From the IMG/VR virus record IMGVR_UViG_3300044697_000063, positions 1 to 39,549 of that record: DNA of 39,549 bases; one strand, written 5' to 3'. How positions within the stretch are numbered: the first letter of the stretch is position 1; every line of letters starts with the position of its first letter. The notes beneath the pieces were generated by a model that was given only the letters and a program-made list of their open reading frames with translations, made no database searches and was not told where the DNA came from. Of this stretch, positions 16,842 through 39,549 are shown piece by piece. This DNA comes from a virus. The position numbers and the translations under genes were made by a program.

Positions 16842-16868
16842 TCCTTCACCACACATATCCTCTTATGG

Positions 16869-20466: not shown

Positions 20467-22350
20467 ATGAAGCGTCTTCTAGGACTGCTCCTGCTTTTCT
20501 GTTCACTTGCGGCCTGGTGTCAAACACCAGGAGTGGCGACGACCATACGCTACGGCGCATCACTACCTTCGGGCGCGGCGGAATGGAGCATCTTCATTCT
20601 CACCGGAGCAAGTTCGGGTCTCTATATCTGCGAAAACAGCCCCTCCTGCACCAGCAGCGGCCAATGGGTTAACGTCTCTAGTTGTCTTGCGAACCCCAAT
20701 GACGGCGGCTGCGCTCTTATCGGTAGCCCCAGCGTCGATACGTTCATTGGTAGCGTCGGTAGCGGTCTTGGTTGGGTCGTACAGGTGCTGGCCACCGTTA
20801 TTAACACCACCCAACCGATCAACGTTCAAGGGACAGGTGCGGGCACGGTCACATTGGGTTGCAGCACGCAACCAGGCACGGGATCTGGTATCTCGCTCGT
20901 GGCGCCCGCAAGTTGCACTCCTTATATTTTGATTCTTCCGAGTGCCGCAGGGTCCGGCTACTTCCAGTGTGCGAACGTCGGGTCGGTAGTCACTTGCGAT
21001 TATGAAGCCGCTATTAACATCGGTTCTTCTGATGTCACCGGCACGTTACCGATTACGTCTGGCGGGACTGGAAACACTACCCAGCAGAGCGCCCTCAACG
21101 CATTGGTGGGCGCGGGCACGGGTGGAAGCCTAGTCATCTATGCCGGTACAAACTGGACCAACACGATTGGTTGCACCCTTAGCACATGTTTCGGCGCTGA
21201 GAATGGGAACGGCGCTTGGGAGTGGATACAATCCCCCCTCCCGGTTATCGATGGAGGCTTCGGCTTAGTAACTCTGGCCTCAAACGCCATCTACAAAGGC
21301 AACGGGACCAGCGCCCCGCAGGTATCTTCTATCAGCGACAACGGTTCTAACGTGGCAATCTCAGAAACAATTACCTGCACAGTGTGTGTAAGTGTTCCTG
21401 ATGGTGGCACAGGATTAGGCACGCTGACAACCGGAACGATTTACAAAGGCAACGGCACGTCGGCTATGCAGGCCAGCAGCATTACAGAAGGTGTTTCTGG
21501 CGTTAGCAGCACGGACGCCATCAATACCAGCGTTGGATTTAAGGTGGGCGCGAGTTTCGGCACTAGTGGTTACTGCTTGACCTCGACCGGCACTGGATCG
21601 GCCTTCAACCCCTGCGGTTCGAGCAGCGCGACGATCAATAACGCCGCGAGCACCGGCACGGTCGCCTTCGATCTCGTGAAACTTACTGGTGTGCCCTCTA
21701 CTGCAGTCAAGACGGCCACCACCGATATCGGTGGCATCATTGGCATCTGCATCTCTTCCTGCGGCACCACCGGAGCTGCGGTAATTCAGCTCATGGGTGT
21801 CAGCACCTGCAACTTCGACAACGTTACTACAGCGGGTGACTATTTCACAATCAGCTCGTCAACCGCTGGACAATGTCACGATCCTTCTGTTGGTGGATTT
21901 CCTCCTCAATACTATATCGGCGCTCAGAATTTGGGTCGTATTCTCGCGAGCGGTTCAGGCGGCGCTACCTCAGTGCTTCTGTTTCCGCCCGAATTTTCTT
22001 CCGCAGGCGCACCCGTAGCAACCTTTAGTTTAGGGTCGGGCGCAGGGTCAGGTTCCCCAACTGTGTCTTGTGCCGTTACCTCCGGAGTGTGTACCGATAG
22101 TGCCGGGCAGATCGAGGTTCATACAGGCACCTCACCATCGACCAACAATATCATTGTCACCATCAATTTTGGCGGCAATCACAACGAAGGTTCTTGTATC
22201 TTCCAGGGACTGGCTGCAAATACCTCCCTCCTTGGCAACGACGTTTACTCATCTCTCGGTGGTTTCGGAACACTTTCTGTCGGTGCTACTGCCCTTAGTG
22301 CAAGCACAACTTATTTCTGGGGGTATGTATGCAATTTTATCGGCAACTAA
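20467..22350 (+). CDS. Fibre-like protein with signal peptide, 627 residues
   Basis: Signal peptide MKRLLGLLLLFCSLAAWCQ. The N-terminal domain ends GLYICENSPSCTSSGQWVNV, like 37523. Tail-fibre-type Gly-rich repeats follow: LPITSGGTGNTTQQSALNAL near residue 195, IDGGFGLVTLASNAIYKGNG near 261 and VPDGGTGLGTLTTGTIYKGN near 312, both continuing with GTSA-Q-SSI. SGGTG-type repeats are common in phage fibres. The C-terminal region is beta-rich. The protein has many cysteines. A secreted fibre is unexpected for a virion part, which assembles in the cytoplasm. Confidence 0.7.
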   Translation: MKRLLGLLLLFCSLAAWCQTPGVATTIRYGASLPSGAAEWSIFILTGASSGLYICENSPSCTSSGQWVNVSSCLANPNDGGCALIGSPSVDTFIGSVGSGLGWVVQVLATVINTTQPINVQGTGAGTVTLGCSTQPGTGSGISLVAPASCTPYILILPSAAGSGYFQCANVGSVVTCDYEAAINIGSSDVTGTLPITSGGTGNTTQQSALNALVGAGTGGSLVIYAGTNWTNTIGCTLSTCFGAENGNGAWEWIQSPLPVIDGGFGLVTLASNAIYKGNGTSAPQVSSISDNGSNVAISETITCTVCVSVPDGGTGLGTLTTGTIYKGNGTSAMQASSITEGVSGVSSTDAINTSVGFKVGASFGTSGYCLTSTGTGSAFNPCGSSSATINNAASTGTVAFDLVKLTGVPSTAVKTATTDIGGIIGICISSCGTTGAAVIQLMGVSTCNFDNVTTAGDYFTISSSTAGQCHDPSVGGFPPQYYIGAQNLGRILASGSGGATSVLLFPPEFSSAGAPVATFSLGSGAGSGSPTVSCAVTSGVCTDSAGQIEVHTGTSPSTNNIIVTINFGGNHNEGSCIFQGLAANTSLLGNDVYSSLGGFGTLSVGATALSASTTYFWGYVCNFIGN

Positions 22351-25300
22351 TCCTCTGGCTCCTGCTTTGCGCGTGTGCGTTCGGTCAAACTACTGTCTCG
22401 GGAGTCGAGAGCAATAGCGGCCTAATCACGATTGGTGGCGTTGGCACCGCTGTAGTCCCGGTTTCCATCACGATTGCCCCTTCGAATCCGACCGTTTGTT
22501 ACTCTTGTGCGCAACTGTTTAGCGCGACCATGACGTTTTCCAATGGCTCAACACAGCCAATAACCACATTGGCCACATGGTCCTCTAGCAATCCATCTGT
22601 AGCGACCACGAGTCAAAGCGGAAACTATCTTTGCGTTGCTCGCGGAACAGTAACCGTGAGCGCTGTCTATCTCGCAGTCACCGGCACTACAACTCTCAAC
22701 TGTCAATCACCCACTTTTACTCCACAGGGTATTCAAAACGTTACGCAAAGCAGCAGCTCGCAGACCTTGGTCCAATACACCGGAGCTGACGGAATAGCCC
22801 CGTTTACCTTCACCGCTGCCAACCTGCCTGCCGGATGGTCCTTATCGTCCGCTGGATGTCCTAGTAGCCAGATCAATTGCTCCTTGATTGGAACGCCCTC
22901 AGCGATCGGCACTTATAACTTCTACATTCAGGCGACCGACAACCTGGGAAATACCGCATGTTCGTCGCCTGGATGCCAGGTTGGTGTGGCTGTGGCCGCA
23001 GGCGGCTCCGAGGGGCTTGAGAATCAATATTGCACTCCGACTTATACTGTAACCGGCCTCTCACAGGACGGCCCGGCGCAGCCGCTTCTGAATTGCAATT
23101 ACACCACAGTCGCGAGCACTTCTCTTAGCTCCCCCTCAGGAATTGGCACTGGGATTATCATCAACGTGTGCTCGCCAGGGGGCACCAGTCCATCCCTCAA
23201 CTGCTTAAATTCACAGCTCCCGACGAAGCCCTCGCTCGCGATGGTCTCCTGCGGAGTAACGTACGGTTATGCGGTTTACGGAACCGGAACCTGCACCTCG
23301 CTTGCTGACGGCCCTTTCTACTCTCGTACTTTTCAAGGCGCTGTTAACTTCACCGCATGGGGTGGCGCGTCACTTGCCGGGGGTGCCGGTAACCTGTGCG
23401 GAGCATGGATACAAGCTCAACCAGCCTTCACTGTCACATTCCACACCGTACAAGCCGTCTATATCGAGCCCAATGTTCAGGCGCCTGTCAACATAAATTG
23501 CGGTCCCGCCTACACCCAACCGTGGGTCTGGGTCACCACATCAGCTTACGACGCCTCCACAAACGCCATAGGTGGTCTACTTCCAGGAAACCGCATAACT
23601 CCTGGATGGGTAGGTCAATCGTCTATTGTAGGGCGCCCTGCCTACGCTCAACCCACCACTGCCGGAATTTACTCACCGATGTGGGAGGGTGAGGAGCTTC
23701 TAGGAGGCCAATGTCCGATATTCACAACACCCAGCGGATCAGCCTTCAATGGCCTACGAATCATGGGCATCGAGTTTGCCTGCGCTCATGGAAGAGACAC
23801 TACGGTCGATCTGTACGGAAATAATGTATGTCCAGCGAATAAGGCCGGTACGCCTCAATGCGATCCCGGCTTTATTGGCGGTTTGGTTGACGTAGGCTGC
23901 TACGTATCCGGACAGGTACAATGCACATCCTCGAACGTTGGCGGCACGGTAGCCACCACCAACTCATCTGTCACTCAAGGTTCGATCACCTGTCCATATT
24001 ATTGCGCGACGTTCACAGGGACATCCGGCACGAATTTTCAGTTCCTAGCGGGCTCAGGATTCAACGGTCTCGTTGACACACAAAACGCTGCAACAGGCGG
24101 ATGTCCGGCCTATTGCGTTCTTCTGCAAAGCGGGCAAAACTTCGGCAATCTTCAGCAGGGTCAGGCAATCAGCATCAACGGCGTGCTTTACTACGTCGGA
24201 GTCAATACAAACCCACAGGGTAGTCTTGGCGTGTACAGCAACACCCTGATGTCGGTGTACAGCGGTATTGTAAGCACAACTGCCGCAGCCACCTTGCCTT
24301 GCACCGGCAATTGTGTAGTGTGGGTATCCGGTGACAACTTCTCCAACCTCACCAGCAGTGAAACCATCGATCTTAATGGTACGTTGTACACGATCGGAAC
24401 CGTATATAGCTCGACCCTGTTTTCCGTTACCTCTTCGGTCACCAAACAAAACTCAATACCATTTACCCTGCCGCTAGGAACGCAAACCAATGCCGTCTAT
24501 CTGTGGGATAGCAGCAATCAGATCAACATCAATGGCGTCGTCTACGGCGTGGCACAGCAGTACACAAACACCCTGATTGGTTTAGTAACAGCCCCCGGAA
24601 CGCAAAGCGGAGTGTCCTATAATTGGCAAACCGGCTCACAATACATCATCCTCGACAGAAACATCTTCTCGGAAACAACTGACATAACACAGCTCAGCAA
24701 CTTCACTACCGGCGAATCCGGCCTCGTAATGCAGGGAGGTCAACATTTGGCCGCGATCAATAACTATTTCGTGGGCTTCACTTGCCTGTACGGTATCGGT
24801 CCCTGCGTAGACGCTCACGCTATCCTCGGTGGTGTTAATGAGCTGACCTCGGATGTTGCGATCACGATCATCAATAACTATATCGAATCTGCCGGTGAGA
24901 CCTGGTTCTTCGGCGGCGGTGCTTCTAACGCCACTCCGATGGATCTGGAAATTCGCGGAAACCATAAGTTCAAGCCTCTGACATGGAAAATTGACAATGC
25001 TCTCTACACCACCACATTCGGAACTGTGGGTGGAGCTTACGTACACACACAAAACAATATCCCATATCAAAGTGCGCCGACTTGTACGGTAAATGCTCCT
25101 CAAACACTGCCGGGGGTATCGTGCAGCTCTCCTCAGTGTGTTCAAGCATCCTGCACTGCACTTTCTAGCGGCGGCAACGGTACTGCGGACACAACCAACT
25201 CTAGCGTTACCCAAGGAACCATTACCTGCCCTGCTGATTGCGTTAGCTGGGATTCCGGCAGCACAAATTTCTCCGTACTAAACGCGAACGAGCAGATCTG

Positions 25301-27440
25301 GCTGAATGGCAGCATCTATGACATCAATGTCATATACAGTCCCACGTTGTTGTCAACGAACGAGGCTCCGGGATCTAATTCCGGCATCGCGTACAGCAGT
25401 TACTACATCACGGACACCATGATCACTGCTGGTGGCAAAGGATATGGCATCTGTTACAAGGGCGGCAGCAGTACCAACAGTTACGGTTGCGGTACCGGCT
25501 TCACATTCACTGACAGTGTAGCTACCTACACCAGTTGCAACACGCAGCTTGCTGGCGATGTGTATGTCACAGGCACGGCGGGCGCGAATAATGACGTGTT
25601 CTGGGTTGACGGTGATAAGTTCACCGCCAAGTTGACTAGTATTCAGGTCAATGGCGTTACCTATGCGATCCTGAACCCCGGTGGTTTTATCAACACTAAA
25701 GAAGTCATCATTGTCAACGGCCCTGGCACTCTGGGAAGTTCCTCTTCACCTGTGCCGTGGTCTACAGTTTTTCAGACCAAAGGCGACTGCGTTGAGCCTC
25801 TGGTAGGCTACTACGATATCAAGAATCTGGGTGAATTAAAAAGCGGTATCCGTGCTCTCATGGAAGGTGAAATTGCGGAGAACTGCTGGACCGGTCAATC
25901 GGATCAATTCGGTTTCTGCTTTCTGATAACCCCCAAGAACCCCAACAATCTTTGCCCTAATTGCTCGGTAACTGATGTCACTTACCGCTATAATTTCTGT
26001 CGTAACACGCTACAAGGAGCCCAGATTGCCGTCGCAGCCGCCACCCAAGGTGGTGAGATGCCTTCTTACTTATCTCGAATTTCCATCCATGACGATGTGT
26101 TCGACGCGATGATTGGGCAGTATCTCACAGCAGGGACGGCGCCTATTTATGCGCAATCTGGAACAGCGATCTCGGTTGAAAACGCTTCACAGTACCCGTT
26201 CGCTACCAACAACGTTACCATCAACCACATCACTGCGATCTTTTCTTCTGTGTACGGTCTTCAGGGGTATTTGGCTTACACTGGAAGCTCTGCCTTGGAG
26301 TTGTTCTACAACCCTTCCTATACGAAGAATTCCACTGTGCCGACCCTCCTTCAAAACATCGCCTACTACAACAACATCGCGGGTGGGGGCGTAAAATCAT
26401 TCGCATCGCATTCAATCGGGACTGTACCAAACATGTTTGGCGCTGCCAACTGCACTACTGATAACGCTTGTATAAATCCGAGCGATCCGCGCCAAGCTCT
26501 TGGGCAGTTAGGCCCAAGTGAAGTTACTATGCGCCAGAATCTCCCGTCCGATTACATGGACCCAGTGTCTGGCGGTCTCTATCAAGGCAACATCGTTACC
26601 GCAATCCAACTAACCGCCCAAGGCACGGGCGGCAACGCTCCAACGTCCTGCACCATGTCCGCGCCGAGTTGCTGGGGTTCAGGTCCGAACACACATACGT
26701 GTGCGGTTGCCCAGTGCCAAATGAACACCTCTGGCGCCAATATTACGAAAATCTGGCCGAGCGCCACCGGAGCTGGCTACACTTCAGCACCAACCGTCTC
26801 CTTTTCTGGCGGCAACACTCCAACCGCAGTTGCATGGATTGGTGGATCAGGTCAATTGAGCACGGGTTCAGGGTGTTTCGACCACAACGTTCTTCCCGTA
26901 CAGGCTTGGGTGAAGGAAGTCGAGATGGGGCCGTACCCTACCGCGCAACTCGACGCCATTAACAATACCTGTTTCTGCCCCACAGGTGGGTATAACAACA
27001 CCGCACCTGGTAGCAGTAACTGCAGCGGAACCCCAGGAACACCGATAACTTCGGCGGATTGTCAGAACGGCGCAAACGGTCCTTGCTCATGGAACGATGT
27101 CGGCTTTGTGAGTTATACGACAGAACTGAACACCGGATGCCTTCCTCCAGGCTGCACTGGTAATTACACGATCGGTGCAGAGTGTTCCACTTTCGCGAGT
27201 GCCTGCACCAACGGTCAAATTCCTGGCACTCCGGATCTTCATCTATGCGTGGCCGGTCAACTTGGCTGCGCGACTAACTCACCGCTTCTCAATGGCGGTA
27301 ATGACGGAAATGATCCTGGCGCAAATATTGACTTAGTAATGGGGTGTGACGGTAGATATCCACTCGTATGCACCGCAGGTACACCCAGCGCTTACACCGG
27401 TATCTCAATCACCAACGGAGTGGCTAACCTGCCTCAATAA
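22329..27440 (+). CDS. Giant secreted repeat protein, 1703 residues
   Basis: GGGGG ribosome site before ATG; overlaps the previous gene by 22 bases. Signal peptide [20 protein letters not shown]. Residues about 35-125 look like a Big_2-type Ig domain ([20 protein letters not shown]) and about 130-220 like a He_PIG-type domain ([20 protein letters not shown]). From about 540 to 1110 six related units recur (V-x-W-x-SG-x-x-F...I-x-LNG-x-x-Y...YS-TL), with right-handed-helix-like N-rich segments between ([18 protein letters not shown]). It could be a tail spike or host-surface adhesin. No catalytic residue set is recognised. Confidence 0.7.
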
Positions 27441-27871
27441 TGAAAAACTTTCTTGCTGTCGCAATTCTATTCCTGGCATCGTTTGTCTCGGCCCAGGTGA
27501 TCTATCTCGGGCCGCTCAATGGCCCGGCAATTGACCCATCGCAGTGCGTGGTGAGTCCGAACGGCCAGACCGGTATCTGTGGCGCCAGCGACGGTGTTCA
27601 TATATCGATCGCGGGCGCTCCTTTCGGCCCGCCATTGCCAGTAAGTGGTCCTCAAGGTCCTGCGGGTGCACAAGGCCCGCCTGGGCCTAGCGGATCGACC
27701 GGCGCAGCGGGACCAGCAGGCCCAGCGGGTGCGCAAGGACCAACCGGTCAAGCGGGTGCGCAAGGCCCTCCGGGTGTGGCAGCAGGTTATACCATCACTG
27801 GAACTTGCACAGTGCCCGGTCACTTCAGCCTACAGCCCTGCACAATCACAATCATTTCCGTAACTCCATAA
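27440..27871 (+). CDS. Collagen-like protein with signal peptide, 143 residues
   Basis: TAATG junction with the giant gene. Signal peptide [19 protein letters not shown]. Residues about 70-112 are 14 uninterrupted Gly-x-y triplets ([36 protein letters not shown]), which form trimeric collagen-like helices in other phage fibres. A Cys-containing C-terminal domain follows ([20 protein letters not shown]). It is likely a trimeric fibre or linker partner of the giant protein. Confidence 0.8.
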
Positions 27872-27880
27872 AAAGGATTC

Positions 27881-28282
27881 ATGCCAGGAATTTTGTCACC
27901 CGTAGGTGGTCCAGTAGCGCGAACGCCGATGGAGCCGATCGCCCGCATGCCTATGCGACCGTACGGCGGCATGCCTGACGGTCCTCGTGCTATGCCGCTC
28001 GCCCGACCGATGATGTACAAGAAGGGCGGCAAGGTTAAGAAGACTGGGTGGGCGATCGTTCACAAGGGCGAGAAGATTAAGCCCGCTGGAGCTGCAGCGA
28101 ACGCGATGGGTGGGAAGAAAAAGAAAGCTCCCAAAACGAAGCGAGCGAAAGCCAAGATCAAAAAGACGATGGGGGAGTGGAGGAGCGGAACCCTTCACAG
28201 CGGATCGAAGACCGGCCCCAAAGTCACCAGTCAGAAGCAGGCCGTCGCGATCGCGATCTCACAGGCGAAAAGAAAAGCATAA
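27881..28282 (+). CDS. Basic protein with DUF6496-like C-terminus
   Basis: AAGGA ribosome site. The N-terminal half is Met/Pro/Gly-rich (RMPMRPYGGMPDGPRAMPLA), then a basic run (KKGGKVKKTGWAIVHKGEK, GGKKKKAPKTKRAKAKIKK). The last 40 residues (MGEWRSGTLHSGSKTGPKV, KQAVAIAISQAKRK) match the motif I remember as DUF6496, common in phages next to structural genes; not verified. It probably binds DNA or RNA. Confidence 0.65.
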   Translation: MPGILSPVGGPVARTPMEPIARMPMRPYGGMPDGPRAMPLARPMMYKKGGKVKKTGWAIVHKGEKIKPAGAAANAMGGKKKKAPKTKRAKAKIKKTMGEWRSGTLHSGSKTGPKVTSQKQAVAIAISQAKRKA

Positions 28283-28522: not shown

Positions 28523-28532
28523 TGGAGGCTCG

Positions 28533-28718
28533 ATGGAAAACACGTCGCTCGTCGCGGATCTCCCCGAAGATGTGGAACTCCATTTCACCCTCAATAGCGA
28601 TCGCCACTTTGGTGGTGTATTCACCTTCAAAATGATCAAAGGCTCTCCAATGCGGCGTCTTCTGGAGCTGCAGGAAGTGTTCGAGATTGCATACGGCATA
28701 AAGCATGGCAGCAGTTAG
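28533..28718 (+). CDS. Small acidic protein before the terminase
   Basis: 61 residues; ribosome site GGAGG. MENTSLVADLPEDVELHFTL, then RHFGGVFTFKMIKGSPMRRL and a helix (LELQEVFEIAYGIKHG). It overlaps the terminase start by 14 bases. It is too short to be an ordinary small terminase (no HTH seen). Its position suggests a packaging or structural helper. Confidence 0.55.
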   Translation: MENTSLVADLPEDVELHFTLNSDRHFGGVFTFKMIKGSPMRRLLELQEVFEIAYGIKHGSS

Positions 28719-30663
28719 TTGGCAGGAGTTAAAAGACGTATACGTAGAAGCCGCCCGCATACCGGACAATGTTTTCTACGACTTCATCAACCACGCTAAG
28801 TTCCGCGAAGATGCGCGGAATAAGATGGAGCTGGGTTTAGATAAATACCTCGAAGAGATGTTGCAGTACGAAGTCTTTCGGGAGGGCAGACGGAGAGCCC
28901 GCCAAGACCTGTATTTCCTCACCCGCTACTTCTGCTGGGAGACAAATGCTGAATGCTCAGGAAAAACTTTCGCAGAGAACATGATTTGCGAACATGTTCA
29001 TCGCCGCCTGTGCGATCTCTTCGTCCGCAAAGATAACAACAAAGGAATCGCGGATCAAGACACATTCAAAGAGCGTCTGATCCTTTATCCCCGAGGCACG
29101 CAGAAGAGCACGATCGACGTAGTGGATGCCGCGCAGTGGATCATTAACATCCCCGAAATCAGAATCCTGTTCCTCACTGCGGTTGATGATCGTGCCGTAT
29201 CTTTCGTAAACGAACTCAAGGGTCACTTCGTAGAGAAACTTTACGAGCCCAGCCTAATGAATATTTTCTTCCCGGAATTCTGCGCACCGGAAAGCGAGAT
29301 CGGTAAAGAGAGCGCCTTCCAGTTCACTTCACCGATGTGGAAGAGACAGAATCTACGACGCCGGGAACCAACTGTAATTGCTTCCTCGATCACATCTGAC
29401 CTTGCAGGCATGCACTTTGATGTTGTGAAGGGTGATGACATCGTTTCGAACCGAAATTCTGAGAACGAAGACATGTGTAAGCGCATTACTGCGCGAATCA
29501 ACATTTCCGTACGTAAAATGCTCATGTCTTACGGTTATTTCGACATTGTAGGTACCAGATACGCCGATGAAGACTATTACGGCGACTTACTGGCTAAAAA
29601 CGTTGGAACTCTGGAAAAACAGAGTGGCCCATGCTGGGACATCACTGAGAACGCGCAAATGAAGTGGAAAACACTCATTGGCCGCGCCATCGTGATCAAA
29701 CCCGAGGTAGCTGCGCAGTTAGAGAAGGAAAAACGCCCAATTACTTATAAAGAGGCCGGTGAAGAAGGTTGTTACCTGCTCTTTCCTGAGGTCTTATCGT
29801 ACGCCTATCTCATGAAGGATTTTGCCCTCGATGAGATCAGCTTCGAAGGGCAGCGAAACAACAACGCCCGGCCCGTTAGCCTCACCCCATTCACGCGCCC
29901 GATGCTTCTGAAAGCGACGGTCCACTTCGAAAAGATGCCGTTCCGTGGTCCCACCTCGCAGACTTGGGACTTTGCTTTCAGCCAGAAGAAAGGCCGCGAT
30001 TATTCGACCGGCTGCTGTGCGTTGTGGGATGACAAAGGCACGGCCTACATCAACGATTTGATCCGTGATCGCTTCCAGCCGAACGACCTGGCGCAAGCCG
30101 TTGTGGACTTCGCCCGCCGCTGGCACCCGTTCATTATAGGCATCGAGGACGCTGGGGGCTCTAGGGCCTTTGAATCCGCGATTCAGATGGCCGCGCAGCG
30201 AACCGGGGATCAGCAAGTGATCGCGGTATGCAATGCGATCGATTGGGTGACGCCCACCAATAATAAGGATGCAAAACGAACCCGCATGGGATCGTTACAT
30301 CCTTGGATCGTCAATGACCAACTGAAATTCTCCGCTCACCTGCCTCATCTCGAAGCACTCTACAGCGAGTTCGAGCGCTGCATGTCCAGCCATCACCACG
30401 ACGATATCCCGGACGTGATCTCACGACAGACAAAATACGGCCCACGCATGCTGCAGGTGATCGAGAAGAACGATATCTCGACTTGGACGAAATCGAACGC
30501 TGCATACAACCTGCTGTTCGAAGAGAACTGTGATGCGTTTGGAAGAATCGGAATGGGTTGGGTGCCTACGATCAATCCAGAGCCCGAGGTTGATAACAGT
30601 CCGAAGATCGAGACGCCCTCAACCGCCTTCGACCCTATCCTCGGTGCCGGGATCTACGGTTAG
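28705..30663 (+). CDS. terL: Terminase large subunit
   Basis: 652 residues. The N-terminal ATPase drives DNA packaging into the prohead: Walker-A-like segment YPRGTQKST at residues 128-136, Walker B DVVKGDDIV at 239-247 (Asp244/Asp245). The C-terminal nuclease (RNase H-like) that cuts concatemers shows WDFAFSQKKGRDYS (Asp422), IIGIEDAGGSRAFE (Glu481/Asp482) and a late HHDDIPDVIS. The segment YFLTRYFCWETN is typical of the N-terminal region. No small terminase was identified. Its 3' end is overlapped by a minus-strand gene for 45 bases. Confidence 0.92.
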   Translation: MAAVSWQELKDVYVEAARIPDNVFYDFINHAKFREDARNKMELGLDKYLEEMLQYEVFREGRRRARQDLYFLTRYFCWETNAECSGKTFAENMICEHVHRRLCDLFVRKDNNKGIADQDTFKERLILYPRGTQKSTIDVVDAAQWIINIPEIRILFLTAVDDRAVSFVNELKGHFVEKLYEPSLMNIFFPEFCAPESEIGKESAFQFTSPMWKRQNLRRREPTVIASSITSDLAGMHFDVVKGDDIVSNRNSENEDMCKRITARINISVRKMLMSYGYFDIVGTRYADEDYYGDLLAKNVGTLEKQSGPCWDITENAQMKWKTLIGRAIVIKPEVAAQLEKEKRPITYKEAGEEGCYLLFPEVLSYAYLMKDFALDEISFEGQRNNNARPVSLTPFTRPMLLKATVHFEKMPFRGPTSQTWDFAFSQKKGRDYSTGCCALWDDKGTAYINDLIRDRFQPNDLAQAVVDFARRWHPFIIGIEDAGGSRAFESAIQMAAQRTGDQQVIAVCNAIDWVTPTNNKDAKRTRMGSLHPWIVNDQLKFSAHLPHLEALYSEFERCMSSHHHDDIPDVISRQTKYGPRMLQVIEKNDISTWTKSNAAYNLLFEENCDAFGRIGMGWVPTINPEPEVDNSPKIETPSTAFDPILGAGIYG

Positions 30664-31578: not shown

Positions 31579-31590
31579 ACAGGATAACTG

Positions 31591-33684
31591 ATGGCGATTC
31601 TTGACAAACCGGTTGTAGCTGTACAGGCTCCGCTCGAATTCGATGCAGCGGTGCGTGCGCTACGCACTGGACAATGGGACGATGATTCTGCACTGCAGAT
31701 GATCGTGCAGGATTCGATCAGGGCAGAGAACTACGAAGCCACCAAGCAATGGGTAATGAGTTGGCCGGTAGCTACTGCGCTGTATCAAAGTCCTTTCACT
31801 TCGCGCTACTGGGAAGGCACTCAGGTAGAACGCGCCAACGTTCCCATGTACACCGTGGCTACGTGCGTGAACTCCCTGGTGCCGCAAATCCTCAGCGGAT
31901 TGTTCTCGGACAACCCGCCATTTATGGTGCAAGAACGACCGGGTACTGACTCCCAAGCGGCCCGAGCGATCGGTGCCTTGCTCGCTTACCAGCTCGATGA
32001 GATTAACTTTCGTGAAGAGCTGCGCTTAGGCGTTCACAATGCCATTCTGTTCGGAACCGGCATCTGGAAATGGGGATGGGAAAGCTTCACTCGTCAACGC
32101 ACACGGTATGAAAGACAGAGCGCAGCTAAACCCATCGCCAGTCCGATCGAAGGCCAACCGGCTATCCCCGTTTACAACGATGACGAAATACAGTTTGTAG
32201 AAGATGAGGAGTATGTTGATCGCCCGGTATTCGATCACATCGTTAACCTCAGGCATGTATTAGTCGATCCTGGATTGAATGTACCAGACATTCGTAAGGC
32301 GAAGTACGTGATTCATCGCATGTACGTAACGTGGAACGACCTCGACAAATTGCGGGAGCGTCCGGGTTTCGACATTCCCTCACGCCAAAAGTTACTTGAG
32401 CTTTTCTTCCCCCCTAAGGAAGAAGCAATACCTGCGACCTCAGAGAATACAGCTAAGAATCCTCTGTGGGATGCACGATCAGAAGCTCGCTATGAAGCTA
32501 CCACGGTAGATCCTTTCAACGAACCACTTGAAATGCTGGAACGTTGGGATGGTGAAAAATACATGGTTGCTTTGCAGAAAAAGCTGGTCATCTGCAACAC
32601 CAGAAATCCCTACGGCGAAATCCCCTTCGTTTCTATCGGATGGTGGGACGTTGCAGAAGCGTTCTGGTCGATGGGTTTGGCTAAGACGATCGGTGCAGAG
32701 CAAAGGCTCCAATCGGGCATCACCAATATGTGGTTGGATCAGGCGGCAATGAATTTGAACGGTATCTACGTTCGAGTCAAAGGCAGAAGCATACCCACGC
32801 AAAACATTCGCATGGCGCCCGGTCGCATTGTGGAGGTCGATAACAAAGATGATTTCACCCCTCTCGATCGAATCCCTGCAGTGCCTGAGGCACAGATTCA
32901 CCTCCAGATGTCGCAAGCACGAGCCGAACAAGTTTCCGGTGCCAACGAAATTGGTACCCAAGGACTCGCTGGTTCTAGCGGGCATTCCAACCTCGCTCGT
33001 TCCGCTGCTGGTGCCAACGCTCTTGTCGCGGGTGGAGCAAATAAGAGCGGCGATTTTGTGGAAAAAATAACCAACCAGGTCATGCTGCCGTTCCTTTATG
33101 CGGCTCATGAGTTGAATCGATCCCTTCTACCGATTCCCACCATGACCTACATCCTTGGTGAAGAGTTACAGCACGAATTCATGAAATCGAAGGGTGACAA
33201 GACTTTGGAACTGCTTAATGCCAAAGTCAAGTTCTCCGTCCTCGCTGCTTCAAAAATGCAGGCCCGCCGCAACATGGCGCAAGCGCTACCGATCTTGGTT
33301 CAGTTCCTCACCAACCAGCAGACCACAGAACAGCTCGCAGTCGCAGGGTATCGCGTCGATGTAGTGGAGATCATGCGTATGTTCTTCGAAGTCTCGGATT
33401 GGAAAAACTTCAAAGATGTAGTGGTTCCCATGTCTCCGCAAGACCAACAACGTCATGCGGCCATGAATCCCGCTGCTCAAATGGTTGCCAAACAGCAAGC
33501 CGATCTGCAAGGAAAAATGCAGTTGGGTGATCAGGCGAAAAATAACAAACTAGAGATCGTGGACGCTGAGAACATCGCGAGAGCTGGCCGTGAAGTATTG
33601 CGACATTCTCTCGAAGCGGCGTCAACTCCAGAAGAGATAGAAGGTGCTCCAGGCGGGGTCGGATTCGGCTCTAACGCTGGCTAA
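31591..33684 (+). CDS. Portal protein
   Basis: 697 residues with AGGATAACTG before the ATG. It sits in the standard order terminase, portal, scaffold, capsid. The stretches MSWPVATALYQSPFTSRYWE, CVNSLVPQILSGLF, IGALLAYQLDEINFREELRL and KTIGAEQRLQSGITNMWLDQ are portal-like and resemble phage portal proteins I remember; it forms the dodecameric ring at one vertex through which DNA passes. The C-terminal 150 residues are helical and Gln-rich (MSPQDQQRHAAMNPAAQMVA). Confidence 0.82.
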   Translation: MAILDKPVVAVQAPLEFDAAVRALRTGQWDDDSALQMIVQDSIRAENYEATKQWVMSWPVATALYQSPFTSRYWEGTQVERANVPMYTVATCVNSLVPQILSGLFSDNPPFMVQERPGTDSQAARAIGALLAYQLDEINFREELRLGVHNAILFGTGIWKWGWESFTRQRTRYERQSAAKPIASPIEGQPAIPVYNDDEIQFVEDEEYVDRPVFDHIVNLRHVLVDPGLNVPDIRKAKYVIHRMYVTWNDLDKLRERPGFDIPSRQKLLELFFPPKEEAIPATSENTAKNPLWDARSEARYEATTVDPFNEPLEMLERWDGEKYMVALQKKLVICNTRNPYGEIPFVSIGWWDVAEAFWSMGLAKTIGAEQRLQSGITNMWLDQAAMNLNGIYVRVKGRSIPTQNIRMAPGRIVEVDNKDDFTPLDRIPAVPEAQIHLQMSQARAEQVSGANEIGTQGLAGSSGHSNLARSAAGANALVAGGANKSGDFVEKITNQVMLPFLYAAHELNRSLLPIPTMTYILGEELQHEFMKSKGDKTLELLNAKVKFSVLAASKMQARRNMAQALPILVQFLTNQQTTEQLAVAGYRVDVVEIMRMFFEVSDWKNFKDVVVPMSPQDQQRHAAMNPAAQMVAKQQADLQGKMQLGDQAKNNKLEIVDAENIARAGREVLRHSLEAASTPEEIEGAPGGVGFGSNAG

Positions 33685-33687
33685 GTT

Positions 33688-34050
33688 ATGGATATCTCGG
33701 AACAGTTAGAAAACATAAACGGAAAAGCTCTTGAGCCTGATGAGCGGGCTGATATCGATCTTTGGAATAAAGGTCGTCAGCTCGCTCACCAGGTCAATAG
33801 TCCAGGTTGGGATGTAGTGCTCGAAATGCTTCAGAGCTACGTCACCAGTAATGTGAACACTCTGATGAACATCGATCCCAAGCATCATGAAGAAGTGTTA
33901 GCAACGCACGCAGTAATGTTTGCGGCGGGGCGAATTTTCAGACTGTTCCAGGAAGATGTAGCCAGCGCGATCGAAGCCTCACGAAAAACCCCCGAGGTCT
34001 TGAAACAAGGAATACGCCGGGCCAGCCCGGTACCACCCGAAAGCTTGTAA
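33688..34050 (+). CDS. Hypothetical head-region protein, 120 residues
   Basis: It starts three bases after the portal stop. Mainly helical (MDISEQLENINGKALEPDER, DVVLEMLQSYVTSNVNTLMN, EEVLATHAVMFAAGRIFRLF). The size and place between portal and scaffold suit a small head-assembly or connector helper. No family is recognised. Confidence 0.6.
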   Translation: MDISEQLENINGKALEPDERADIDLWNKGRQLAHQVNSPGWDVVLEMLQSYVTSNVNTLMNIDPKHHEEVLATHAVMFAAGRIFRLFQEDVASAIEASRKTPEVLKQGIRRASPVPPESL

Positions 34051-34092
34051 CAAATACCCGTAAAAAGGTCGGATTACCTTTAAGGAGAACGA

Positions 34093-35271
34093 ATGCCACC
34101 CACCATTGTAGATCCGTTCGCAGACGAACAGTTTGCTCAGCTCGACTTGTCAACCAGCCCGAAACATTTGAAGGACTCGCTGAATACGCTTGTCGATGAG
34201 AATCCTGAGTTCGCCCCAACGCAAGAGGAGGTGATCGCCGCTGACGGTCCCGCTCCAGAACCGGTAGTTCCCCCGGCAGCTCCCATAGCTCCCGTTGTTA
34301 CTCCTGCCCAACCCGAAACGTACGAATATCCTGACGGCTCGACCGTCACTCTGGAAAAAACAAACAGAGGATGGGAAGCCACCCTCAACTCCGGTGGTAA
34401 GGCGCCCGAGATATTTCGTGGCAAAACCAAAGACGAGCTGCTCACCAATGTACTCGCTGCAAAGTTACACGCCACTCAGCACATTCGCGAACTGAATAAG
34501 AAGATTAAGCTGACTGCGAAACCGGAAACACCTGTCGCGGTTCCGCAAGCTAAGCTTCGCTCACTCACACCGGATGAAGTGTTCGAGATTAAGAATCAGT
34601 TGGTAGACAACCCCGATCTGGCTTTTGATTCATGGTTTCAGAAGAAGACTGGCCTCAAAGTCGAAGAGCTGGTCGGTCTTGTAGAAGAAGGCCGCTTCGC
34701 CAAGGATGAGTTGGACTCCGAAGCCGTGGCGAAATCTTTCATGCAGGGCAATCCGGAATACTATGCCGATCCGGAGTTCAACAACTATCTCACCTTGGTT
34801 GGATTTCTCTCTAAAGAGAAGCTCCACCGAACCATGACGAACGATCAGCCTGGTGTCAACGAAGCCATGCGTGATCTGATTCGCGGCGGTCATTGGACCG
34901 TACAGAATTTAGAAGAGGCGTTTGAGGAACTATCTGAGGCTGGATTGCTTGAGATGGCTCCGAACGTGGAAGAGGAAGAGGAGGAGATCCCTTCTCCAGC
35001 CGTCCCGCCTGTTGCACCTGTTGCAATTGTGGCGCCAGTTGTACCAGTCCCCGTACCACCTGTACCACCGGCACCTCCTGCTGATCCGCGCATTGCGAAC
35101 ACCAGAAGGGGCCTGAGAGCGGGTCTAGGTATCCGAGAAAGCCAAGTGTCAACGGCTCTTCCTGATACAGCCAGACCGTCCTCTGATGACGAGTTGGACA
35201 ACCTCACCGATGCGGAAATCCAGGAGCTATTCTCCGGAGTCCGTCGCGTGGCTGCTACTCGGGGTAAATAA
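34093..35271 (+). CDS. Capsid scaffold-like protein, 392 residues
   Basis: AAGGAG before the ATG. The N-terminal half has a Pro/Ala/Val-rich linker (PEPVVPPAAPIAPVVTPAQP), a beta-type patch (YEYPDGSTVTLEKTNRGWEA) and helices (ELLTNVLAAKLHATQHIREL). It is acidic in the middle (VEEEEEEIPSP) with a second Pro-rich linker, and the C-terminus is DELDNLTDAEIQELFSGVRR. Acidic, linker-rich helical proteins right before the capsid gene are typical scaffolds that guide capsid assembly and then leave. Identity rests on place and composition. Confidence 0.65.
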   Translation: MPPTIVDPFADEQFAQLDLSTSPKHLKDSLNTLVDENPEFAPTQEEVIAADGPAPEPVVPPAAPIAPVVTPAQPETYEYPDGSTVTLEKTNRGWEATLNSGGKAPEIFRGKTKDELLTNVLAAKLHATQHIRELNKKIKLTAKPETPVAVPQAKLRSLTPDEVFEIKNQLVDNPDLAFDSWFQKKTGLKVEELVGLVEEGRFAKDELDSEAVAKSFMQGNPEYYADPEFNNYLTLVGFLSKEKLHRTMTNDQPGVNEAMRDLIRGGHWTVQNLEEAFEELSEAGLLEMAPNVEEEEEEIPSPAVPPVAPVAIVAPVVPVPVPPVPPAPPADPRIANTRRGLRAGLGIRESQVSTALPDTARPSSDDELDNLTDAEIQELFSGVRRVAATRGK

Positions 35272-35291
35272 GAAATACCAGAGGTAAGAAG

Positions 35292-36278
35292 ATGGCATAC
35301 TCGCCAGCTTCAATTCTTACTTCAGGTGCGTTGCCTAACCTCGTTGCTATTTACTACGAGCGGCAGGCGATTCCCAACCTGAAAGCACAAACACCATTCC
35401 TGAGCATGACGAAGCAGAAGCCGCTTCCGATGCACTCGGGCAACCAGATCCAGTTCTTCACCTACGCACTCTTGGCTGGCAACACCAACCAGGCTGCGGA
35501 AGGTACGGTTGGATCTCCCATCTCTGAGTCGTCCACGAAGATTGTGGCAACGATCGGACAGTACGCAGACTTTATCAACTCGTCTGATCTGGCGATGGAT
35601 GTAGCGATTGACGACCCGTCGTTGCTCCAGAACCTGAGTACCGAGTTGAACTACCGTCTTGCTCTGACGCTGAATTCGCTCGTCCAGTTTACTTCGGACG
35701 CCGCGACCGGCGTGGACAGTTCGGTGAACATCCAGTTGGCCAACGGTTCTTACCTGACCGCCAACAATATCCGTACCGCCTGCCAGCAGTTGGCCGGTGT
35801 CAACGCTCGACCGTTGACGAAGGACGGGTACTTCGGTGGAATCATCCACCCCAACGTGGTTCACGATGTCTTCAACGATACCAGCTTCAACGGCATCACC
35901 GACATCATGAAGCGCAATCCCGAGATGGCGCAGAAGCTCTTTGCTCCTCTCGCGAATGATGACACCTTCGAGTTTGCGGGTGTTCGCTTCAAACAAACCA
36001 CCACCGCTCCTTCGGTGACCATCAGCTCGAATACGTACTACAACACGTATTTGTACGCTGATGACGCCCTCTTCTCCGTGTTCCTCGGAAAGAACCCCGA
36101 GAGCGGGGAGAAGAACTACCGGTTGATGGTGCAGGAAGCTCCCGCGCAAGGCAGCGTGAGTGATCCGGCACGACAGATCGGTGGCTGGGTTAGCTACAAC
36201 GTGCGCTACACCAACACGTTGCGTCCGGGTTCAACCATGACGATCCGGCGTTTCCAGTCAGAAACCAGCTCCAGCTAA
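35292..36278 (+). CDS. Major capsid protein, N4-gp56 family type
   Basis: 328 residues, strong ribosome site. Features: MAYSPASILTSGALPNLVAI, YYERQAIPNLKAQTPFLSM, TKIVATIGQYADFINSSDLA, LNYRLALTLNSLVQFTSDAA, YFGGIIHPNVVHDVFNDTSF, RYTNTLRPGSTMTIRRF. This is the pattern of N4-gp56-type HK97-fold capsid proteins. It builds the icosahedral head with the portal at one vertex. A strong hairpin follows the gene. Confidence 0.9.
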   Translation: MAYSPASILTSGALPNLVAIYYERQAIPNLKAQTPFLSMTKQKPLPMHSGNQIQFFTYALLAGNTNQAAEGTVGSPISESSTKIVATIGQYADFINSSDLAMDVAIDDPSLLQNLSTELNYRLALTLNSLVQFTSDAATGVDSSVNIQLANGSYLTANNIRTACQQLAGVNARPLTKDGYFGGIIHPNVVHDVFNDTSFNGITDIMKRNPEMAQKLFAPLANDDTFEFAGVRFKQTTTAPSVTISSNTYYNTYLYADDALFSVFLGKNPESGEKNYRLMVQEAPAQGSVSDPARQIGGWVSYNVRYTNTLRPGSTMTIRRFQSETSSS

Positions 36279-36342
36279 AGCAACACGCTGGTTAAAACCA
36301 GCCGTTCCCTGGTCCCAGGGTATGCAAAGGGGCAAACGGTTT

Positions 36343-36371
36343 TGCGGAGATTAGCGATCCTAATCTCCGCA
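36343..36371 (+). terminator. Strong 12-bp hairpin after the capsid gene
   Basis: TGCGGAGATTAG (36343-36354), five-base loop, CTAATCTCCGCA (36360-36371), all paired. No T-run follows on the plus strand, so it is not a classic intrinsic terminator; it may act as a 3' stabiliser for the abundant capsid mRNA. Upstream CCCTGG/CCAGGG (36307-36320) forms a second small palindrome. The 248 bases 36279-36526 hold no gene that I can support. Confidence 0.5.
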
Positions 36372-36526
36372 TAACCTGCGTCAAATAGCCGTCGCAACCC
36401 ATCGGAAGCGCGGTGATCACGAAAGAGTAAGACTGGTCCTCTTATTCCCGACTGACGAGATACAAGGGATCGGATTGACCATCTTATCCCTTGTTATCTT
36501 TCCCACACTCTGACACCGAGGCTGCA

Positions 36527-36925
36527 ATGGAAGAATCACTTAGTAGAGAAGCGCACGCGAAGCTAATGTTCGAACAACGTGATGCGCAGATCGGGCATCT
36601 GCCCGTACAAATTCTGTTAGACCTGGCCCGCAATGAAGCGGCCAGTAAAGAGTGGCGTAAAGCTGCAGTCCAATTTCTCATGGATAAACACGCGACTCAA
36701 GCGAACCACCCCGATCTCGCTACTCTCAGGCTCGAAATCGCTACCGAACACACCGCGAAACAAGACGTTCAAGACATGGTGGAGACTGCCATCGAAGGGG
36801 AGTTATTCCCAGAACCAACGCCCTTCGCTGCTGGAGTAACCACGGCCAACCTTCAGCGCGACGAGGCGGTCAACAACATTGTCCGCAATCCGGACGCCTT
36901 AGGTGATGACGCCCTTAATGACTAA
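36527..36925 (+). CDS. Hypothetical structural-region protein, 132 residues
   Basis: Start ATG 36527 with CCGAGG upstream. The N-terminal half is helical (MEESLSREAHAKLMFEQRDA, LLDLARNEAASKEWRKAAVQ, FLMDKHATQANHPDLATLRL) and resembles small phage proteins near the capsid. The C-terminus is acidic (VRNPDALGDDALND). It might be a head-completion protein. Confidence 0.6.
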   Translation: MEESLSREAHAKLMFEQRDAQIGHLPVQILLDLARNEAASKEWRKAAVQFLMDKHATQANHPDLATLRLEIATEHTAKQDVQDMVETAIEGELFPEPTPFAAGVTTANLQRDEAVNNIVRNPDALGDDALND

Positions 36926-36942
36926 CGTACAAAGGAGCAAGC

Positions 36943-37557
36943 GTGCTCGATCAACGTAACTACTTTGCTCCATACGTAGGTCCACCGGGACTTCAAGTAT
37001 CTGTAAATGGCGGCATCCTGCTCCTCAATGGGGTCGGAATGATTGTGTCCGCGACAGCAGTAACTCTGCCTGCGGTGACCACCAGCTATATTTATCTCAA
37101 TACCTCGACCGGCGCGATTCAAAGTAACACCTCAGGATTTCCAAACACTAACTGCTACTCAATCGCCACCGTACTCACCAGCCACTCTGGAATCATTATC
37201 CTCACTGACAACCGCCCCGATGTTACGTCTGGTGGCGGTGGTGGAGGCGGTGGGACCGCTGAGTACGTACAAACAATATCTGCCACACCTGGATCGGTCA
37301 TTGGCTTTGGCGGTGCCTTCAACACGTTAGTCAAAGTAACGGGCGGTGCTGTCACCATCCCTCTCCCCACTGCGGTTGGCATAAGTGGTCAGATCATCAG
37401 AACCATTATGACTGTATCTGGCACTACTTCATTCACTACGCAATCCGGCCAAACAATCAACGGTTCCGCTACTTTGCCGCAATTGACTAACCAATGGCAA
37501 ACCATTTCTATGGAGTCTGATAATGCCAACTGGATTATCGTTTCTACGGCGAATTAG
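36943..37557 (+). CDS. Virion attachment module protein, paralogue of 19894-20466
   Basis: 204 residues from GTG 36943 with AAAGGAG upstream. Contains TSYIYLNTSTGAIQSNTSGF, YSIATVLTSHSGIIILTDNR, PDV followed by a poly-Gly linker (GGGGGGGG) and a beta-rich C-terminus (GQIIRTIMTVSGTTSFTT). The C-terminal sequence resembles phage fibre-tip folds of the PI-T-S type only loosely. As at 19894, the next gene starts with a signal peptide and overlaps it (35 bases here). Confidence 0.65.
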   Translation: MLDQRNYFAPYVGPPGLQVSVNGGILLLNGVGMIVSATAVTLPAVTTSYIYLNTSTGAIQSNTSGFPNTNCYSIATVLTSHSGIIILTDNRPDVTSGGGGGGGGTAEYVQTISATPGSVIGFGGAFNTLVKVTGGAVTIPLPTAVGISGQIIRTIMTVSGTTSFTTQSGQTINGSATLPQLTNQWQTISMESDNANWIIVSTAN

Positions 37558-38905
37558 TCTCATCCTTTTATTGTGGTGTGGATGCGCCTTAGCGCAGGTA
37601 CCCACACCAATTCGTTCGGTCTCAAGCCTGCCCGCAACCTGTAATGGTGGGAGCGGAAGCAAAGCCTCTGATGTGGTGATTCTCATCAGCGGTGGTACCG
37701 GCACACTTTATATCTGCTCAGCGAGCAATACGTGGTCCGTTCTCGTCATCGGTCCTCTGAACAACATTGCGTACGGTTCAAACTCGATTGCGACTACGGA
37801 CTTAGTGACCGTAGATACGAACGGTTACGCCGCCGACACAGGCATCGCTCAATCATCGGTGAATACATCCGGCGCTAATGTGATCTCGGATACACAGACG
37901 CAATATACCTTGCCGATGTGGAACCTGAGCAACCATCTCACTAACTCAATGTTCTCGCAGAACTCCGGAGCGAGTGTCGGAACTGTTACCGGCAACCTCA
38001 GCGTTACTGGTACCATCACCAGCTCGGCCAGCGGAGCACCACTCAACGCCACGGCGGTATCCTCTACAACAACCCCATCGTCCGGCGTCAATCTTCAACC
38101 CATCACGGGACTAGGCTGGGTGTCTACCGATACATCGACTGGACAAAACTACGCTCCGGATAAATACGTCACCTCCGCACCTTCCGGTTCCTGCTCCTCT
38201 ACTTTCGCAGCACCACTACCCGCGCAAATCGTAGTCAGTACGGGTGCGCTCTGGACTTGCCAAAGCGGTACCTGGGCACAAGTAACCGGTGGTGGAGGCG
38301 GCGGAACGGTCACCGGACTCAGCGGATTAACCTCGGGGAATGCCTATGCGAACGTTGGCGGAACATGGGTGCCTGCGGATGCGTGGGGTTTCCCGACAGC
38401 AGGAAAAACGGCGACATTCACCAATTCCAGTGCGGTCATCACGGTCACGAATTCTGCCGCGCTTTGTACTCCCGTTCAGTTTTCGACGACGAGTGCGCTG
38501 CCTACGAACTTTGCGGTCAACACGACTTACTACGTTAGTTCAACCGGGCTCTCCGGTTCGCAGATCGAAGTCTCCGCGACATGCGGCGGATCGGTCATTA
38601 CGGCAGGCTCGGCGGGGTCGGGAACACAAACGGCTATTAACACGAACAACGGCCTAGTCGTTCCCCCGCCGCTTGCGGTTGGCATTGCGACCTCTTCGTC
38701 GGTAATTCAGTTGAACGGCGTATACACAACGACTGGATTGACGGCTGGCTCCATCTACTGCATTTCGACCACGAGCGCGGGAGCGATTACGACAACGTGT
38801 CCGAATGGCTCATCGTACAGTGGCTCGGCCTTGCAACAATTCGGACAGGCAATCTCAACCACGCAATTGATCTTCCCGTTGCCGAAACAGGGAGTCATCA
38901 ACTGA
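37523..38905 (+). CDS. Fibre-like protein with signal peptide, 460 residues
   Basis: GGAG before the ATG. Signal peptide (RRISLILLLWCGCALAQ). The N-terminal domain (VSSLPATCNGGSGSKASDVV, GGTGTLYICSASNTWSVLVI) corresponds to that of 20467 (LPSG..., GLYICENS...W). Ser/Thr/Gly-rich beta repeats follow with a poly-Gly linker (TGGGGGGTVTGLSGL) and an ISTTQLIFPLPKQG end. It is the second fibre-like protein of a duplicated cassette. Confidence 0.65.
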   Translation: MPTGLSFLRRISLILLLWCGCALAQVPTPIRSVSSLPATCNGGSGSKASDVVILISGGTGTLYICSASNTWSVLVIGPLNNIAYGSNSIATTDLVTVDTNGYAADTGIAQSSVNTSGANVISDTQTQYTLPMWNLSNHLTNSMFSQNSGASVGTVTGNLSVTGTITSSASGAPLNATAVSSTTTPSSGVNLQPITGLGWVSTDTSTGQNYAPDKYVTSAPSGSCSSTFAAPLPAQIVVSTGALWTCQSGTWAQVTGGGGGGTVTGLSGLTSGNAYANVGGTWVPADAWGFPTAGKTATFTNSSAVITVTNSAALCTPVQFSTTSALPTNFAVNTTYYVSSTGLSGSQIEVSATCGGSVITAGSAGSGTQTAINTNNGLVVPPPLAVGIATSSSVIQLNGVYTTTGLTAGSIYCISTTSAGAITTTCPNGSSYSGSALQQFGQAISTTQLIFPLPKQGVIN

Positions 38906-39549
38906 TGAAGCGCGGACTGATTTTCATTATCGTTGTGCTTGTGATTGCAGTTTGTATACCAAGCGCCAATGCCCAGAGCGCATCGCAGGGAGGCTCGTGC
39001 AGTAATTTTGCTTCAACTCCGTCATGTTCGGTGACCCCCACGAGCACAAGCGATTATCTTGTCGCATGGATCGGCAATGAAGCTGGAACCAACACGTCTC
39101 CTACGGCCTCGGGGTGCGTGACGTGGACGCAATTGTATACAAGTACGACTGGATATACTTGGAACATTGGTCAGGTCACCTCTACTTCCCCATGCACGAT
39201 TACAGTTGCGGGAAGTGGCACAGAGACAAGTTATGTATTGATTAACTGGTTTGAAGTGTCAAGTGTTTCTGCAACGGCGGACGGGGCGTCTTCTCCGGGG
39301 AGTTGCACCGGCGGTTGTAACACAAACCCGATGAACGGACCAGCCGTCACCACGGGGACTAGCGGCGATCTGATTCTCATCGCTGGACAAAATCAAACCA
39401 AGACTGATGCCTTCTCCGCGCACACTCCATTCACAAGTGTGTTTGCGGCGGCGAATGCCAACTACTACGGTGCTAGTGGTTATTACGTCCAACTCAGTTC
39501 TGGATCCATCACGCCGACCTGGACCACCACTGGGAATTTTGACGGCTAC
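38905..39549 (+). CDS. Secreted fibre-region protein, 3' end outside the window
   Basis: ATGA overlap with the 37523 stop. 215 codons, open to the right edge. Signal peptide MKRGLIFIIVVLVIAVCIPS followed by ANAQ. The mature part is Ser/Thr/Gly/Cys-rich (SGCVTWTQLYTSTTGYTWNI, SGDLILIAGQNQTKTDAFSA, WTTTGNFDGY) with a WTTTGNF segment. The fold suggests a beta-sandwich virion or surface protein. If the sequence were circular, position 1 would continue it in frame for DKA and a stop; no evidence shows circularity. Confidence 0.65.
   Translation, partial: MKRGLIFIIVVLVIAVCIPSANAQSASQGGSCSNFASTPSCSVTPTSTSDYLVAWIGNEAGTNTSPTASGCVTWTQLYTSTTGYTWNIGQVTSTSPCTITVAGSGTETSYVLINWFEVSSVSATADGASSPGSCTGGCNTNPMNGPAVTTGTSGDLILIAGQNQTKTDAFSAHTPFTSVFAAANANYYGASGYYVQLSSGSITPTWTTTGNFDGY

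What the first reader, a model, noticed from the sequence alone, without database searches (positions are those of the whole stretch)
20467..39549. Phage fibre-like proteins with Sec-type signal peptides
Products at 20467, 22329, 27440, 37523 and 38905 all start with clear signal peptides and are rich in Cys, although they sit among virion genes and two contain fibre-type repeats or collagen-like triplets. Ordinary tail fibres fold in the cytoplasm. These may be displayed on or secreted from the infected cell, for example to coat it or to bind rival phages, or be added to virions outside the cytoplasm.
Basis: partly seen in the sequence, partly recalled or inferred. Interest (0 to 1): 0.65.

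Follow-up and report, generated by a model that had tools for sequence, protein, structure and literature searches.

The report
Phage tail-fibre-like proteins with export signals
A group of phages that probably infect soil Acidobacteriota carries large, fast-changing, cysteine-rich fibre-like proteins with bacterial export signals, so the phage probably sends them out through the host membrane to mature instead of folding them in the cytoplasm as phages normally do.

Summary
All five proteins begin with Sec/SPI signal peptides, each with Gln at the first position after the likely cut, and sit in two translationally coupled runs in the structural region of a tailed phage. In 12 near-complete relatives, 29 of 115 genes of at least 300 aa in the structural stretch carry signal peptides, against 0 of 170 elsewhere. 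One recurring fibre N-terminal domain exists in both forms: all 23 distinct signal-bearing copies have a cysteine pair at the ends of one predicted hairpin; all 11 signal-less copies lack it (one split on the tree). The domain resembles the virion-docking domain of podophage tailspikes. The signal-less gene heading each run in the window resembles tail-fibre/receptor-binding base domains. In the closest relative this partner is conserved over its N-terminus, while the signal-bearing proteins are replaced by unrelated ones that mostly keep the signal and Cys-richness. Best reading: receptor-binding fibre or tailspike parts exported by Sec, oxidised in the periplasm, and joined to virions at or after lysis. 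A role on the infected-cell surface, with no virion role, is the main rival. Export is well supported; virion attachment is inferred. No description was found in the papers searched.

The parts
19894..20466 (+). partner gene 1: signal-less, Cys-free fibre-base protein (190 aa), directly upstream of the signal-bearing run
   Evidence: AlphaFold2 of residues ~10-92 confident; top 12 PDB matches are phage or archaeal-virus tail proteins, led by cyanophage A-1(L) tail fibre E 2.9e-4, then lactophage p2 RBP and Mtd; 64% identity over the N-terminal 107 aa in closest relative
20467..22350 (+). signal-peptide fibre-like protein 1, 627 aa, 24 Cys, MKRLLGLLLLFCSLAAWC|Q
   Evidence: no homolog in closest relative
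22329..27440 (+). signal-peptide protein 2, 1703 aa, 67 Cys, Big_2 domain, [20 protein letters not shown]
27440..27871 (+). signal-peptide collagen-like protein, 143 aa, [19 protein letters not shown]
   Evidence: Pfam Collagen 3.3e-8; PHROG tail fibre matches, which rest on the collagen repeats
28705..30663 (+). terminase large subunit (context)
   Evidence: phrog_38 9.3e-45
31591..33684 (+). SU10-type portal (context)
   Evidence: PF23899 7.4e-27
35292..36278 (+). major capsid protein (context)
   Evidence: phrog_1357 4.4e-21
36943..37557 (+). partner gene 2: signal-less fibre-base protein (204 aa, 1 Cys), homologous to 19894
   Evidence: alignment A3, profile search
37523..38905 (+). signal-peptide fibre-like protein 4, 460 aa, MPTGLSFLRRISLILLLWCGCALA|Q
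38905..39549 (+). signal-peptide protein 5 (946 aa, 27 Cys on G001), MKRGLIFIIVVLVIAVCIPSANA|Q, continues beyond the window
   Evidence: relative L236 (67% best segment) also has a signal, of different sequence

Best explanation
These are receptor-binding fibre or tailspike components that the phage exports. A cytoplasmic, Cys-poor fibre-base protein (19894, 36943) is translated just ahead of one or more signal-bearing proteins. These are carried by Sec into the host periplasm, cut by signal peptidase I to leave N-terminal Gln, and stapled by disulfides with the host's own oxidation machinery. They wait there and join the virions (on the base protein or by their own docking domain) when the cell lyses. 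SHOWN: genes, signals, Cys pattern, clustering, fold similarity of one recurring N-terminal domain and of the partner, hypervariability. INFERRED: actual export and cleavage, disulfides, post-lysis docking, receptor binding.
For: Signals on all five. Relatives: 29/115 vs 0/170 genes of at least 300 aa. Signal-bearing proteins of at least 250 aa have 1.83% Cys vs 0.39% in labelled core genes. Gln after a small residue near the cut in 27/33; in one Acidobacteriota MAG Gln is the commonest +1 residue, 30/82. Head-protein relatives turn up in Acidobacteriota MAGs. VKOR disulfide enzyme in 17/21 relatives of that MAG. Family-1 domain: 23/23 with signal have the Cys pair, 11/11 without lack it; the two Cys (by residue count 74 and 93) fall at the ends of adjacent strands of one hairpin; best solved matches are Pan3 and Pam1 podophage tail proteins and P22/Sf6 tailspike head-binding domains, and predicted viral pectate-lyase-type proteins. 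Signal-bearing tail cassettes sit in the tail-gene region where isolate Tunturi_3 has signal-less tail fibres. The window's partner resembles tail-fibre/RBP domains. Closest relative: partner conserved, signal-bearing genes unrelated, most with signal and high Cys kept.
Against: No proteomics was found for any of these phages; the Tunturi paper mentions no mass spectrometry and that phage has no such signals on its fibres. The window's own five proteins share no detectable docking domain with family 1. The TTR-like fold also matches pilins and carboxypeptidase domains at nearly the same Z. The Cys/signal association is one split on the tree. Some relatives' proteins upstream of TerL carry exoprotein-type domains (ASH-type Ig, chitobiase C-terminal, weak GH39). 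At least one relative (G012) has no large signal-bearing fibre and keeps signal-less ones.
Confidence: 0.5

Rival explanations
1. The proteins are exported but never enter virions: they act on or around the infected cell, masking receptors against superinfection, degrading or binding exopolysaccharide, or acting as decoys.
For: Export evidence is the same. Several signal-bearing genes upstream of TerL carry exoprotein-type Ig, chitobiase C-terminal and weak glycosidase matches. Ordinary signal-less fibre-like genes coexist in some genomes. Lambda lom is an exported outer-membrane protein gene among tail genes (PMC12309495), and Porphyromonas phages encode Q-rule secreted proteins of unknown function (PMC10367356).
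Against: Family-1 members keep a tailspike-docking-like fold right after the signal; signal-bearing genes sit in the tail region beside fibre-base genes and turn over like receptor-binding genes.
Confidence: 0.3
2. Mixed set: the proteins in the tail-gene spot are exported tailspikes, while those upstream of TerL are cargo exoproteins acquired from hosts.
For: Domain content differs between the two spots; an Acidobacteriota chromosome carries a lone signal-bearing relative near recombinase-like genes.
Against: In the window and its closest relative the TerL-upstream run is headed by a fibre-base protein, and both kinds share Cys-richness.
Confidence: 0.12
3. The hydrophobic N-termini are not export signals but buried virion or membrane anchors that are never cleaved.
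For: No cleavage data; the home-made scorer also fires on some true membrane segments (LacY scored 3.01).
Against: Small residue-Gln at the cut in 27/33, Cys pairs only on signal-bearing copies, sequence-divergent but position-conserved signals between homologs, and paralogs that start directly with the mature domain.
Confidence: 0.05

Closest known systems
P22/Sf6/Pam1/Pan3 podophage tailspikes
   Same: Family-1 mature N-terminus is predicted to have the docking-domain fold (Z about 7-9); long variable C-terminal part follows; located among tail genes
   Different: Known tailspikes carry no signal peptide and fold in the cytoplasm (own knowledge); here a Sec signal and a Cys pair precede or lie in the domain
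Lactophage p2 RBP, Mtd and cyanophage A-1(L) tail fibre
   Same: The window's partner gene 19894 has a predicted base domain of this kind
   Different: The partner is short and followed by separate exported proteins
Q-rule secreted proteins of Porphyromonas gingivalis phages (PMC10367356)
   Same: Phage genes with signal peptides cut before Gln
   Different: Those have unknown function and a Bacteroidota host; here the genes are fibre-like, Cys-rich and in the structural region
Phage lambda Lom
   Same: Exported protein encoded among tail genes
   Different: Lom is an outer-membrane beta-barrel, not a fibre-like, Cys-rich protein
Tunturiibacter phage Tunturi_3 (PP885686)
   Same: Acidobacteriota phage with similar structural gene order and tail fibre genes in the comparable region
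   Different: Fibres have no signal peptide and few Cys

Membership tests
Sec/SPI-exported proteins | n-h-c signal peptide with -3/-1 small residues | tested here: met
   Home-made scorer and shuffles; SignalP not available
Sec/SPI-exported proteins | cleavage and translocation in cells | not testable with these tools
   needs N-terminal proteomics
Tailed-phage tail fibre/tailspike | location in the structural operon near tail genes | tested here: met
Tailed-phage tail fibre/tailspike | virion-docking N-terminal domain | tested here: inconclusive
   Fold similarity for family-1 relatives, close to generic TTR-like matches; not found in the window's own five proteins
Tailed-phage tail fibre/tailspike | sequence match to fibre families | tested here: inconclusive
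   27440 via collagen repeats only; four others have no PHROG match
Tailed-phage tail fibre/tailspike | presence in virions | not testable with these tools
   no isolate
Bacteroidetes Q-rule substrates | Gln at +1 after SPI cut | tested here: met
   5/5 in the window by eye; 27/33 in relatives
Bacteroidetes Q-rule substrates | Bacteroidetes host | tested here: not met
   Two head-protein hits in genomes, both Acidobacteriota MAGs

The most novel reading that the evidence does not exclude
Tailed phages of Acidobacteriota build their receptor-binding tips outside the cytoplasm: fibre tips are Sec-exported, disulfide-stapled in the periplasm and attached to cytoplasm-made virions only at lysis, a split-compartment assembly route not described for Caudoviricetes in the papers searched.
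Probability: 0.4. Interest if true: 0.85.

Novelty: new variant of a known kind. Interest (0 to 1): 0.68.

Why it matters
Tail fibres and tailspikes decide host range and, as generally understood, are made and attached in the cytoplasm. If some phages export them, virion maturation includes a periplasmic, disulfide-forming step and a post-lysis joining step, and infected cells would display or release phage adhesins before lysis. It would also change how structural genes are annotated in soil viromes, where signal-bearing genes may be dismissed as host cargo.

Tried and rejected
Homolog searches for 20467 and 22329 found only the same phage in IMG/VR and nothing in isolate phages. tblastn of the family-1 domain and of partner 19894 found no isolate phage. 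Profile searches with segments of the window's signal-bearing proteins gave self matches, the L236 relative, and a stretch shared between 37523 and 38905. A third module (YYV...GG) was too rare to compare. Pfam and PHROGs gave nothing for most large signal-bearing proteins. Literature searches for exported tail fibres found no description of the phenomenon. Chance was rejected by shuffles and by the 0/170 control. Independent gains of signal plus Cys could not be claimed: one change on the tree. Structure of the partner beyond residue ~94 failed. AlphaFold on the window's own signal-bearing proteins was not attempted: too few relatives.

Full report
WHAT THE WINDOW IS. The window is a linear IMG/VR virus fragment. 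A second contig, G001 (82,397 bp), matches 21,881 bases of it at 99.98% and runs about 51 kb further right. Some 0.7 kb differ in arrangement near 8.6-9.6 kb. It is a tailed phage with terminase (phrog_38), a portal of the SU10 family (PF23899) and a major head protein (phrog_1357). The host is probably Acidobacteriota: a scan of genome contigs with the head protein found two loci, a Candidatus Sulfotelmatobacter MAG and an 'Acidobacteria bacterium' MAG, and the best isolate phage match of the terminase is Tunturiibacter phage Tunturi_3 (29% identity). MAG contigs can be contaminated, so this is likely, not proven.

THE OBSERVATION. They form two runs joined by overlapping or abutting stop and start codons: 19894/20467/22329/27440 and 36943/37523/38905. 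SignalP was not available; a home-made scorer calls all five. Shuffling the first 45 residues reaches the observed score in 76, 19, 0, 8 and 0 of 5000 trials, so two of the five are individually less extreme than the rest. At the most plausible cut each leaves Gln (AWC|Q, AFG|Q, VSA|Q, ALA|Q, ANA|Q). The first two cuts are my reading; the scorer placed them three residues earlier. Cys counts are 24/627, 67/1703, 4/143, 10/460 and 27/946. Two more signal-bearing genes, 15452 and 16294, lie next to an endolysin-like ORF.

RELATIVES. The terminase found 10 viral loci and the head protein 80. Signal-bearing, fibre-like genes recur in them. Twelve large contigs were taken whole. Of genes of at least 300 aa, 29 of 115 carry a called signal between 20 kb before the terminase and the conserved gene p48069, against 0 of 170 elsewhere. 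The scorer missed some clear cases by eye (for example in G002, G004 and G008), so 29 is a low count. Signal-bearing proteins of at least 250 aa have a median 1.83% Cys, other genes 1.04%, labelled core genes 0.39%. Gln follows a small residue near the cut in 27 of 33. Not every relative has them: G012 has no large signal-bearing fibre and carries signal-less ones.

HOST MATCH. In 611 kb of the Sulfotelmatobacter MAG, 82 proteins passed a stricter signal threshold and Gln was the commonest +1 residue (30/82). The Q-rule papers describe this as exclusive to Bacteroidetes (PMC5837995, PMC10653852), so the Acidobacteriota preference is itself a lead. Host signal-bearing proteins are Cys-poor (0.31%), so the phage proteins do not simply look like host exoproteins. 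The disulfide-forming enzyme VKOR is found in 17 of 21 genomes around this MAG.

A NATURAL COMPARISON. One recurring N-terminal domain (consensus TTGYHR...IYSDP...GNYxYY) occurs in two forms, in several relatives in tandem: a short copy without a signal, then a long copy with one. Of distinct copies, 23 of 23 with a signal have the Cys pair and 11 of 11 without lack it. On a tree the two forms are separated by a single change (support 87/76), so this is one evolutionary event kept over long divergence, not many independent ones. AlphaFold2 gives a confident beta sandwich (mean pLDDT 84.6). By residue count the two Cys, 74 and 93, lie at the start and end of adjacent strands 74-81 and 85-93 of one hairpin, where a cross-strand disulfide is possible; distances could not be measured. 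Best solved matches are chains of the Pan3 (Z 9.3) and Pam1 (Z 9.0) podophage tails, with P22/Sf6 tailspike head-binding domains at Z about 7. Transthyretin-like domains of carboxypeptidases and pilins score 7.5-8.5, so the fold alone does not prove docking. Predicted viral matches include pectate-lyase-superfamily proteins. These copies lie between tail genes p45524 and p46774 in several relatives; Tunturi_3 has signal-less tail fibres in the comparable region, though its gene order there differs slightly.

THE WINDOW'S CASSETTES. The window's proteins do not carry the family-1 domain (G000 and G001 have no match). Instead both runs begin with signal-less proteins of one family (19894, 36943). 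Residues of about 10-92 of 19894 are modelled confidently, and the 12 best PDB rows are all phage or archaeal-virus tail proteins: cyanophage A-1(L) tail fibre (E 2.9e-4), lactophage p2 RBP, Mtd, and a haloarchaeal virus baseplate. Two other relatives, G008 and G011, show the same order, partner then signal-bearing gene (the G008 signal is by eye). In the closest relative, G334 (terminase 83%), the order partner, then large Cys-rich proteins, then terminase is kept. The partner is 64% identical over its first 107 residues. The window phage's six signal-bearing genes in this stretch (the five plus 41779 on G001) have no match there, while its structural neighbours mostly match at 30-97%. The replacements are 824 aa (13 Cys, signal called), 361 aa (13 Cys, no call) and 2683 aa (93 Cys, signal called). 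Rapid replacement behind a conserved base is what receptor-binding genes do; that step is inference. A relative of 38905 in another contig, L236, keeps a signal of different sequence.

MECHANISM AND RIVALS. I think the most likely function is exported, disulfide-stapled receptor-binding parts that join virions at lysis (0.5). Action at the cell surface without a virion role is the main rival (0.3), favoured by exoprotein-type domains in some relatives' proteins upstream of the terminase. A mixed set gets 0.12, uncleaved anchors 0.05. Late addition is plausible because P22 tailspikes can be added to finished heads in vitro (own knowledge; one search did not yield a paper stating it). No proteomics was found to decide; the Tunturi paper reports none.

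KNOWN OR NEW. Phage genes obeying the Q-rule are reported in Porphyromonas phages, with unknown function (PMC10367356), and lambda Lom is an exported protein among tail genes (PMC12309495). Searches found no report of exported tail fibres, within an open-access library only. I call it a new variant of a known kind (tail fibre/tailspike system), with the novel reading at 0.4.

Noticed in passing
L189-L228 (Sulfotelmatobacter MAG): Gln is the commonest residue after the predicted signal-peptide cut (30/82), although the Q-rule is described as exclusive to Bacteroidetes.
   Followed up: partly
window 15452-15778 and 16294-16773: Two more signal-peptide genes near an endolysin-like ORF (16782-17366), possibly lysis-related.
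   Followed up: no
L005 13179-13562 (about 41779-42162 in window numbering, beyond its end): A small Ig-like gene begins with a near-copy of the signal-peptide DNA of 38905 carrying a one-base insertion, suggesting recent duplication of the signal; could be an assembly error.
   Followed up: partly
window about 8600-9600: Window and G001 differ by roughly 0.7 kb in arrangement.
   Followed up: no
L232 3809-7255 (G242:C1:713809-717255): A lone signal-bearing family-1-like gene in an Acidobacteriota chromosome near recombinase-like genes and without obvious phage structural genes nearby.
   Followed up: partly
L063 15767-16696: A signal-bearing, protease-like protein (by eye) near the head gene in some relatives.
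   Followed up: no
relatives such as L055, L066, L090: The head-protein match is spread over 1.2-1.5 kb, which suggests introns or inserts in the gene.
   Followed up: no
window 15072, 17437, 18280, 18358: Four tRNA genes (Met, Asn, Thr, Ala) near the lysis and fibre region.
   Followed up: no
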